Shown here: positions 1 to 24,974 of the stretch, piece by piece | Numbering within the stretch: the first letter of the stretch is position 1 | Layout: every line of letters starts with the position of its first letter | NCBI GenBank assembly: GCA_021816775.1 | Contig: JAKAXA010000014.1 | Coordinates: 1-64,000, forward strand | DNA from: Pseudomonadota bacterium | GTDB lineage: Bacteria > Pseudomonadota > Gammaproteobacteria > Steroidobacterales > Steroidobacteraceae | Direction: 5' to 3' | Length of the DNA: 64,000 nucleotides | Program-made: the position numbers and the translations under genes | The notes under the pieces: generated by a model | What the model saw: the letters and a program-made list of their open reading frames with translations, nothing else | Databases searched by the model: none | What the model was told of the DNA's origin: nothing

Positions 1-745
1 TCACGGTGCCGACGAAGATCGCCCCGTGGCGCACGACCAGATTGCGGGACAGCTGGTGCAGATGATCGGATCTGCGGTTTTTGAGCCTGGCATGGATCGC
101 CCGGGCGCGAGCCTTCTTGCCGGCGCGTTGTGCGACGGCAAGCTTGCCCTCGAGTTCCGGGTAGAACCGCGCCGCCTCGACCTTCAGGCCCGCGGAGGTG
201 GTGCTCAGATCCTTCAGGCCGAGGTCGATCGCGATCGCATCAGAAGGGGCATGCAGGGGCGCTGCTTCCCGCTTCACTCTCACGAGCGCGTTCAGATGCC
301 ACCGGGCGCGGCCGTCCTCGCAGACAGAGCCGCAACGGTTGCAATACTTCGAGAGATCCCAGCTGTCCCAGGGCCGCAGGCGCCGGCCCATGACGCGCAC
401 GACACCCGGGGAGCGGCATTGGATCGCGACCGCCTTGAAGGGGACCCATCCCAGGCTGTCGTTCGAGCGCTTCCGATCCGAGACGCGACAGCGGAGCCTG
501 CGCCGGCGCAACGGCAGCCGGCGCAGCACGTACTCCTCGTTCACCGCCTGCACCGTCTGGGAGTGCAGCTCAAGACCCGCTTTCGTGGCGAGGGCGGTGA
601 ACTCATGCAGATCCTCTGCCGAGAGAAACCGATCCTCGCGCTCGAGGACCTTCAGGCAGGTCCGCGGGTCGTCGTTCCAGACAAAGTTGACCTCACACGC
701 TCGAGCTCAAATTCAGGACACGTGCTTGTCCCGCACGCGCACCCG
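1..745 (-). pseudogene. IS200/IS605-family TnpB (OrfB) remnant, truncated by the window edge and carrying in-frame stops near its N-terminus
   Basis: My minus-strand translation gives RVRDKHVS*I*ARACEVNFVWNDDPRTCLKVLEREDRFLSAEDLHEF...SLGWVPFKAVAIQ...GRARWHLNALVRVKREAAPLHAPSDAIAIDLGLKDLSTTSAGLKVEAARFY..., with TnpB N-terminal features and a RuvC-I type IDLGLKD motif. Stops fall at about 707-709 and 713-715. Confidence 0.8.
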
Positions 746-23077: not shown

Positions 23078-23103
23078 CTGGCGTCACTCCCGATGACGAG
23101 AAA

Positions 23104-23300
23104 TATTGTACTGTACACCCTTGACGTCGTCCCCTCCCTGAAGGCAGGGGATTTCCGTCTACCGGAGGCCGGCGTTCCGGCCCGAGACGAGGAGATTGAT
23201 CGCAGAGTTGACGTCCCGGTCATGCCGAGCGCCACATCCGCAACAGATCCACTCTCTGACTACGAGGCCCTCTCGACCTTGTCGGCCGCCGCGCGCACCG
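23104..23300 (-). ncRNA. Putative TnpB omega-RNA/right end, including RE hairpin and adjacent guide
   Basis: Minus strand GGAAATCCCCTGCCTTCAGGGAGGGGACGACGTCAA after the tnpB stop resembles right ends of IS605-type tnpB elements. Predicted guide is the flanking GGGTGTACAGTACAATA. 5' boundary is a guess. Confidence 0.5.
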
Positions 23301-24181
23301 CACGCGGAACAGACCTGCGTGGTCAATCGCTCGTCAACCTCGATGTACTCGGCCCCGTGCCTGATGGCTTTATAGCGGAGCTGGGATCGAAGTTGCGAGC
23401 AGCCCGCATCGAGCGCGGACTTGGCCACGGCAGTGCGGGCCCGACCTTGCGCGTTGACGTTGCCCACGCAGATTCGACCGTTCTCGCGCACGAGGCGGCT
23501 GGAGACCTCGTGCAGGCCGTGCCGGCGGCAATTTGCGATCTTGGTGTGGAGGGCCCGCACACGCGGCTGGCGTGCGGCCCGTTGTGCAACGGCGAGCGCC
23601 TGGTCATGCTGGCGGTAGCGGCGCGGCGCCTCGACCTTCTCTCCCGTGGAGAGTCTCGCCAGGGACTTCAGGCCCGGATCGATGCCCACTTCCCCCGTGC
23701 CACACGCTCTGTCTTGCGCGACTGGTGCCTGCAGGTTCAGGTACCAGCGGCCGCGGGCGCCCTCGGCGAAGCAGCCGCAGAGGATTCTGCCCTCGAGCGG
23801 ACGACTGAGCCAGACCCGGTACCGCCGCCCGAGGAAGATCACCGCATCGCCGTCCAGGCGAATGGCGCGCGCGGCCTGCAAGGGGATCCGCCCCAAGGAA
23901 TTCCTGCCGAGCCATCGCGGCCGCTCGTGGCGGGCATCCCGCGCGATCGCGATCGGTGTGCACACGGGCTGAACAGCATCCGAGTGCAGGCCCCGGGGCT
24001 TGCTGCTGCCGCTGGCGAGGCGGATCAGATCGAAGGCCGAAGGCCAGCGCTTGTCGTGGCAGCGAGCCGCGTGCTGAACCTCCCCACAGTCGTTCCGCAC
24101 GCGCTTCACCGCGCGGGCCTGCCGCTCGAGATGCCGAGCGGGGCCGGCATCTTTGACCCTATACTGAGAGGTCAGCACCAT
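23159..24181 (-). CDS. tnpB: IS200/IS605-family TnpB (OrfB) RNA-guided endonuclease, full length
   Basis: 340 aa from MVLTSQYRVKD. RuvC-I VGIDPGLKSLARL, RuvC-II YIEVDERLTTQVCSACGA, zinc finger CSAC...CCGCG, RuvC-III HDRDVNSAINLL. Confidence 0.92.
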   Translation of the reverse strand: MVLTSQYRVKDAGPARHLERQARAVKRVRNDCGEVQHAARCHDKRWPSAFDLIRLASGSSKPRGLHSDAVQPVCTPIAIARDARHERPRWLGRNSLGRIPLQAARAIRLDGDAVIFLGRRYRVWLSRPLEGRILCGCFAEGARGRWYLNLQAPVAQDRACGTGEVGIDPGLKSLARLSTGEKVEAPRRYRQHDQALAVAQRAARQPRVRALHTKIANCRRHGLHEVSSRLVRENGRICVGNVNAQGRARTAVAKSALDAGCSQLRSQLRYKAIRHGAEYIEVDERLTTQVCSACGARGGRQGREGLVVREWICCGCGARHDRDVNSAINLLVSGRNAGLR

Positions 24182-24228
24182 TGCGACATTGTCGTCGAGA
24201 GATGCGGCAAGAAACAAGACCAACGGCT

Positions 24229-24263
24229 ACGGCGTGCGGGCATTTTCACGCCCGACTTGCCGT
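24229..24263 (-). repeat. Putative left-end imperfect hairpin of the tnpB element
   Basis: ACGGC-AAGT-CGGGC-GTGAAAAT-GCCCG-CAC-GCCGT on the minus strand; two 5-bp stems with an internal loop, subterminal upstream of tnpB. Confidence 0.5.
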
Positions 24264-24443
24264 CGGCAATACCACAACTTGCAACACCCTGAGGAGCGAC
24301 GAGCTCGTGCTGCGCGCTAGATTTGCCTCTCGCGGATGCTCGACAATACGTGCCGTTCGAGGTCTGTCAACAGCCGCGAGAGCGCTCACCCAGGCGCCTG
24401 CTCCTCGCCCTGAACGGCGAGGCTTGCGGCGCGGAGAGTTCGG

Positions 24444-24974
24444 ATGACTGTCCGACGGGTGTTGAAGATGGGCGAGCCGCTGCTCGGGCAGGTGGCCGCC
24501 CCGGTGGAGCGATTCGATGCCGAGCTCCAAGGGCTGGTGCAGGACATGGATGACACCATGCGCGCCCTGAACGGCGCCGGAATCGCCGCACCGCAGATCG
24601 GAGTCAGTCTGCGGGTGGTCATCTTCGAGGTCGCCGACAACCCACGCTATCCGCACGTGTCGCCGGTGCCCTACACGGTGCTGGTCAATCCCGAGCTGAC
24701 GCCGCTCGGCACCGAGCAGGCCGAGGGCTGGGAGGGGTGTCTGTCGGTGCCGGGACTGCGCGGGCTGGTGCCGCGCTACACGCGGCTGCGGTACCGTGGA
24801 TACGATCTGCGCGGCGCGCCGATCGAGCGCACGGTCGAGGGCTTTCACGCGCGCGTGGTGCAGCACGAGGTGGATCACCTCGACGGGATCCTCTACCCGC
24901 AGCGCATCGAGGACATGCGCAACTTCGGCTTCGAGGACGCCCTCGGGGCGCGCATGACGCCGATGCCGGACTGA
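24444..24974 (+). CDS. def: Peptide deformylase
   Basis: GAGIAAPQIGVSLRVVI, EGWEGCLSVPGLRG, QHEVDHLDGILY. Confidence 0.95.
   Translation: MTVRRVLKMGEPLLGQVAAPVERFDAELQGLVQDMDDTMRALNGAGIAAPQIGVSLRVVIFEVADNPRYPHVSPVPYTVLVNPELTPLGTEQAEGWEGCLSVPGLRGLVPRYTRLRYRGYDLRGAPIERTVEGFHARVVQHEVDHLDGILYPQRIEDMRNFGFEDALGARMTPMPD

What the first reader, a model, noticed from the sequence alone, without database searches (positions are those of the whole stretch)
23104..24290. Intact tnpB-only element with readable ends and a predictable guide
TnpB retains all three RuvC motifs and the zinc finger. The right-end hairpin (CCCCTGCC-TTCA-GGGAGGGG...GACGTCAA) and a left-end imperfect hairpin are visible, and no TnpA is encoded locally. 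By analogy to ISDra2-type TnpB, the omega-RNA should end at GACGTCAA and carry the flanking DNA GGGTGTACAGTACAATA as guide, so donor-site homing can be predicted.
Basis: partly seen in the sequence, partly recalled or inferred. Interest (0 to 1): 0.6.

Follow-up and report, generated by a model that had tools for sequence, protein, structure and literature searches.

The report
Start-codon-landing TnpB transposon family, decaying copy
The window holds a 1.3-kb RNA-guided-nuclease transposon whose nuclease gene is open but decaying; its relatives repeatedly landed exactly against the start codons of working genes and carry a ribosome-binding-site-like sequence at that edge, which could let them sit in front of essential genes without silencing them.

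Summary
The element is real, but its left end and its 'intact' status need correcting. Comparison with empty sites in congeners fixes it at 23121-24443 (minus strand, 1,323 bp). The tnpB frame is open, but its RuvC-II glutamate is in the alternative (E_alt) position, conserved residues are lost, and it evolves near neutrally; a sister species has the same insertion with a broken tnpB.

The element belongs to a family of TnpB elements and 0.3-kb tnpB-less derivatives with target motif TCAT (45 of 47 sites). TCAT is the complement of ATGA, and 30 of 47 insertions abut the start codon of a Pfam-supported gene (def, lysS, metF, proC, gcvH...), against 4.5% of TCAT sites in the genome. In 41 of 50 left ends a Shine-Dalgarno core sits just upstream of that ATG. 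Here the element separates def (peptide deformylase) from its conserved native promoter region. Start-codon association is shown; a working ribosome-binding site is inferred.

The parts
23121..24443 (-). whole element, 1,323 bp
   Evidence: absent as a clean block from orthologous sites in G008, G041, G029 and others: 23120 joins 24444
23159..24181 (-). tnpB open frame, 340 aa from the likely ATG; E_alt-type RuvC plus zinc finger; near-neutral evolution
24343..24370 (-). promoter-like site for tnpB, TTGACA-16-TATTGT
   Evidence: 1 found, 0.1 expected in shuffles; consensus match only
24403..24422 (-). left-end hairpin CCTCGCC-GTTCAG-GGCGAGG
   Evidence: conserved in family with double changes in the stem
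24433..24437 (+). Shine-Dalgarno-like GGAGA, with GGAG ending 7 nt before the def ATG; inside the left end
   Evidence: sequence; SD core in 41 of 50 family left ends; function inferred
24444..24447 (-). target motif TCAT (on + strand ATGA, start of def)
   Evidence: 45 of 47 family sites have TCAT
24444..24974 (+). def, peptide deformylase, begins at the element border
   Evidence: Pfam Pep_deformylase residues 4-159, 9.6e-49
23131..23150 (-). right-end hairpin CCCCTGCC-TTCA-GGGAGGGG, one mismatch against the family
23167..23182 (-). second right-end stem GGCCGG-AACG-CCGGCC of the presumed guide-RNA scaffold
   Evidence: two pairs with double changes across the family
23104..23120 (-). right flank, predicted guide GGGTGTACAGTACAATA = displaced native def leader

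Best explanation
This is an old, decaying copy of a TnpB-only IS200/IS605-like element whose family inserts 3' of TCAT. TCAT is the complement of ATGA, and the insertions seen are heavily concentrated exactly against gene start codons. Inferred cycle: a Y1 TnpA acting in trans moves a single strand between TCAT and the right-end TTAA/TCAA; TnpB with the right-end RNA recognises TCAT plus the flank in an unoccupied allele and cuts it, so that the element is copied back. The left end carries a Shine-Dalgarno-like GGAG/GAGG 5-7 nt before the ATG, so the gene behind it would keep a usable ribosome-binding site although its own leader has been pushed away. Here the element lies between the conserved def leader and def; its tnpB is drifting and probably inactive. 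Shown: borders, target motif, match of guide to the empty site, start-codon association, tnpB-less relatives, near-neutral tnpB evolution. Inferred: transposition mechanism, nuclease activity of the family, RBS function, source of def transcription.
For: Clean empty sites. Family with conserved ends and tnpB-less copies. TCAT in 45/47 sites. 30/47 sites abut Pfam-supported gene starts against 4.5% of all TCAT sites and 25.8% of noncoding-boundary ones; p = 5.8e-28 and 3.5e-7 computed for 30/50. SD core in 41/50 left ends, in linkers of differing sequence and length. TCAT+guide exact in 8 congeners, the own junction reads TCAA. Own-branch 26 nonsynonymous: 11 synonymous, like the G048 pseudogene branch, 29:13.
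Against: The SD letters lie beside the hairpin foot, where they may serve TnpA; copies are related, so 41/50 is not 41 independent events, and the shuffled-energy contrast is weak. About a third of sites are not at recognised gene starts. No outward promoter found, so def transcription after insertion is unexplained. No cognate TnpA identified. No expression or cleavage data. Background start calls come from a home-made gene caller.
Confidence: 0.75

Rival explanations
1. Survivorship only: the element inserts at any TCAT, most insertions inside genes are lost, and start codons are simply common harmless TCAT sites. The GGAG/GAGG of the left end is a transposase recognition sequence without a role in translation.
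For: Purging of intragenic insertions is expected; the SD letters are conserved beside the hairpin foot, also in copies not at starts.
Against: Start sites exceed even the noncoding-boundary background, 25.8% (p = 3.5e-7). Surviving sites include genes expected to be essential (def, lysS), whose native leader is displaced and which need some replacement leader.
Confidence: 0.22
2. One reading: an intact, active element whose own TnpB cuts the empty def site with this guide.
For: Open frame, zinc finger, readable ends, correct guide, promoter-like site.
Against: 16 of 86 family-invariant positions altered, including W29R, W98R, W261C, R91L, L169P; near-neutral changes on its branch; low AF2 confidence over the N-terminal part; hairpin mismatch; same insertion broken in G048.
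Confidence: 0.12
3. Exaptation: a TldR-like RNA-guided repressor of def or of the def/DUF3014 intergenic region.
For: The guide lies on a promoter-like leader conserved across congeners and the nuclease site looks altered.
Against: No target within 2 mismatches in the own genome except the element's own junction, which lacks TCAT; no purifying selection visible on the branch; the same copy is a pseudogene in G048.
Confidence: 0.03

Closest known systems
ISDra2 / IS608-type IS200/IS605 elements with TnpB
   Same: TnpB fold and domains (8h1j, 8exa, 8bf8); subterminal hairpins at both ends; insertion 3' of a short motif without target duplication; right end followed by a guide flank
   Different: no tnpA in the element; TCAT motif; E_alt RuvC-II; landing against start codons with an SD-bearing left end
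E_alt TnpBs (ISXfa1, IS607) and pro-Fanzors, PMC10711439
   Same: RuvC-II glutamate six residues before the zinc finger; the window copy also reads DPG in RuvC-I
   Different: IS200/IS605-type ends rather than IS607; relatives read DLG, so DPG is a private late change; the published pro-Fanzor spacing pattern does not match
tnpB-less IS200/IS605 derivatives (MITE/PATE type)
   Same: short, both ends kept, no gene, many copies
   Different: keep about 65 nt of guide-RNA-like right end, so they might be served by TnpB in trans; land at start codons
TldR RNA-guided repressors
   Same: TnpB relative with altered nuclease site and a guide on a promoter-like region
   Different: no separate genomic target and no sign of purifying selection

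Membership tests
IS200/IS605 family, TnpB-only (IS1341-like) element | TnpB with RuvC and zinc-finger domains | tested here: met
   Pfam, NCBIfam and Foldseek matches, although the copy is decaying
IS200/IS605 family, TnpB-only (IS1341-like) element | subterminal hairpins, insertion 3' of a fixed short motif, no target duplication | tested here: met
   empty site 23120|24444, TCAT in 45/47, covarying hairpins
IS200/IS605 family, TnpB-only (IS1341-like) element | mobilised by a Y1 TnpA | tested here: inconclusive
   an intact IS200-type TnpA is encoded elsewhere in the genome; not shown to be cognate
active RNA-guided TnpB nuclease | guide RNA from the right end and TAM-dependent cleavage | not testable with these tools
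   sequence predicts TCAT + GGGTGTACAGTACAATA; activity of this copy doubtful
E_alt TnpB | no canonical RuvC-II Glu; Glu six residues before the zinc finger | tested here: met
   alignment, VGNVN and VDERLTTQVC; definition from PMC10711439
pro-Fanzor | DPG plus E_alt with the published spacing | tested here: not met
   published pattern does not match; close relatives read DLG
TldR | retained, nuclease-dead TnpB with a guide matching a promoter elsewhere in the genome | tested here: not met
   no target within 2 mismatches other than its own junction; near-neutral evolution

The most novel reading that the evidence does not exclude
A TnpB transposon family specialised for start codons: its target motif is the complement of ATGA, its left end supplies a ribosome-binding site, and its guide then targets the leader of the same gene, so that a host can hardly escape by mutating the motif without damaging a start codon. 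tnpB-less derivatives that keep the guide-RNA-like end use the same trick.
Probability: 0.5. Interest if true: 0.75.

Novelty: new variant of a known kind. Interest (0 to 1): 0.58.

Why it matters
It suggests a concrete way for an insertion element to sit directly in front of essential genes without killing the cell: land on the start codon and bring a replacement ribosome-binding site. If confirmed, it would explain target choice, tolerance and persistence of a TnpB family, give a start-codon motif (TCAT) for an E_alt TnpB, and make it testable whether TnpB homing favours sites the host cannot easily mutate.

Tried and rejected
Rfam: no family in the region. Genome-contig search returned only the sister copy. 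Pro-Fanzor reading of DPG rejected: spacing fails, and relatives read DLG. TldR-like reading rejected. AF2 gave a low-confidence model (pLDDT 67), enough for fold assignment but not for active-site geometry. The SD energy contrast with shuffled or slid leaders discriminates only weakly, because the ends are G-rich and the copies related. An outward promoter for def was looked for and not found. Left-end-model hits outside the genus (G092, G173, G221, G398) lack TCAT and look like chance; G288 has TCAT but its ORF has no Pfam match. The element is not held in plasmids beyond short tnpB pieces. Literature searches for start-codon landing, TCAT-type motifs or RBS-carrying IS200/IS605 ends found no precedent in the held library; Borrelia IS605 stem-loops lie at 3' ends of genes and are a different case. 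Only open-licence papers were searchable.

Full report
OBSERVATION. The minus strand of 23159-24181 encodes a 340-aa TnpB. A query made of the two flanks finds the uninterrupted site in many congeners; in G008 (94% identity) window 23120 joins directly to 24444. The element is therefore 23121-24443.

FAMILY. Searches of 58 genomes of the genus with left and right ends, a left-end pattern, a tnpB-less element, and a left-end covariance model over 396 genomes of the order gave about 50 loci, essentially all in this genus: TnpB-type elements, and about 290-bp elements without tnpB that share the right end. Hairpins at both ends show compensatory changes (right end: 14 double-change cells against 5.2 in shuffles; left end: 19 against 8.5, carried by the inner stem; shuffles ignore relatedness). 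Flanks are unrelated except for TCAT immediately 5' of the left end in 45 of 47 sites, with TCAC and TCAG once each.

START CODONS. TCAT is the reverse complement of ATGA. Reading outward from the left end, 30 of 47 sites start a Pfam-supported gene exactly at that ATG (in one case GTG, with TCAC): def, P450, metF, proC, an alpha-amylase-family gene, cheB, a 2-oxoacid dehydrogenase E2, PPK2, nadC, lysS, hisIE, a ParA-like gene, a histone-deacetylase-like gene, a NAD epimerase, gcvH, a ferredoxin, nudix, SDR, a VapB antitoxin and others. One of the 30, a truncated LMWPc match, is just under its Pfam cut-off. Domain matches mostly begin near the N-terminus. Insertions before metF, hisIE, gcvH and def seen in two species each were counted once. 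In 463 kb of the genus (mostly this genome) there are 2,804 TCAT sites; 125 (4.5%) are predicted gene starts and 359 more are noncoding or boundary sites (home-made gene caller, approximate). Thirty of 50, a conservative denominator, has binomial p = 5.8e-28 against all TCAT sites and 3.5e-7 against noncoding ones.

RIBOSOME-BINDING SITE. The left end read outward is GGCGCGGAGANNTCGG-ATG in TnpB-type copies and CGCCGAGGATCGG-ATG in tnpB-less copies; divergent subfamilies read CCGGAGATCGG, CCGGAGATGCG or CCGGAGACGTG before the ATG. GGAG, GAGG or AGGA occurs at the right place in 41 of 50 (16% in shuffled leaders). The copies are related, and the same letters lie beside the hairpin foot where a transposase could read them, so RBS function remains an inference. 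Native def leaders in over a dozen congeners read AAATATTGTACTGTACACCC-ATG or close to it, with no SD; in this genome that block now lies 1.3 kb away, across the element. No outward promoter was found, so how def is transcribed here is open.

GUIDE. TCAT plus the 17-nt guide occurs without mismatch in 8 congeners, at the empty def site; in this genome the only near match is the element's own junction, where the motif reads TCAA. Several congeners whose def begins ATGG or ATGT have the leader but not the TCAT motif. This is the arrangement expected of a homing TnpB that spares its own junction.

STATE OF TnpB. The protein has the E_alt arrangement of RuvC-II (glutamate six residues before the zinc finger; PMC10711439), as do its closest relatives. 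It departs from 16 of 86 positions invariant in family members; the close relatives G055 and G022 depart from 4 and 5, a more distant one (G014) from 15. Since the split from G048 its branch has 26 nonsynonymous and 11 synonymous changes, close to neutral and like the G048 branch (29:13), whose copy has a 93-bp deletion, a stop and a frameshift. Pairwise dN/dS is 0.31-0.39 for the window copy against its close relatives, and 0.19-0.40 among those relatives, so the pairwise values alone do not decide; the polarised counts do the work. The copy is best read as a decaying relic. AF2 with 16 sequences gave pLDDT 67, with the N-terminal part poorly modelled; Foldseek finds TnpB structures first.

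TRANSPOSASE. No TnpA lies in the element. An intact IS200/IS605 transposase is encoded on another contig, and a broken one elsewhere; neither is shown to be cognate.

VERDICT. The locus itself is an aged member of a known kind. The family-wide landing on start codons, with an SD-bearing left end, appears to be an undescribed variant as far as the held literature shows.

Noticed in passing
window 2-700 (-): Second, diverged TnpB fragment cut by the contig end (38% identity to the first; OrfB_IS605).
   Followed up: partly
window 23078-23120: The def/DUF3014 intergenic block ATATTGTACTGTACACCC, with the palindrome TGTACTGTACA, is strongly conserved across congeners; it could be a shared promoter or operator.
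   Followed up: partly
L142-L154 and others: Family of about 290-bp tnpB-less elements, many copies in G034 and G055, keeping a guide-RNA-like right end.
   Followed up: yes
L229 (G039:C323): Single insertion at TCAC, abutting a GTG-start ParA-like gene.
   Followed up: partly
L130 (G000:C41:79837-80193): Lone intact IS200/IS605 TnpA in the same genome; cognate ends not identified.
   Followed up: partly
L309, L311: Insertion of a divergent subfamily before gcvH in both G055 and G035, with the same target.
   Followed up: partly
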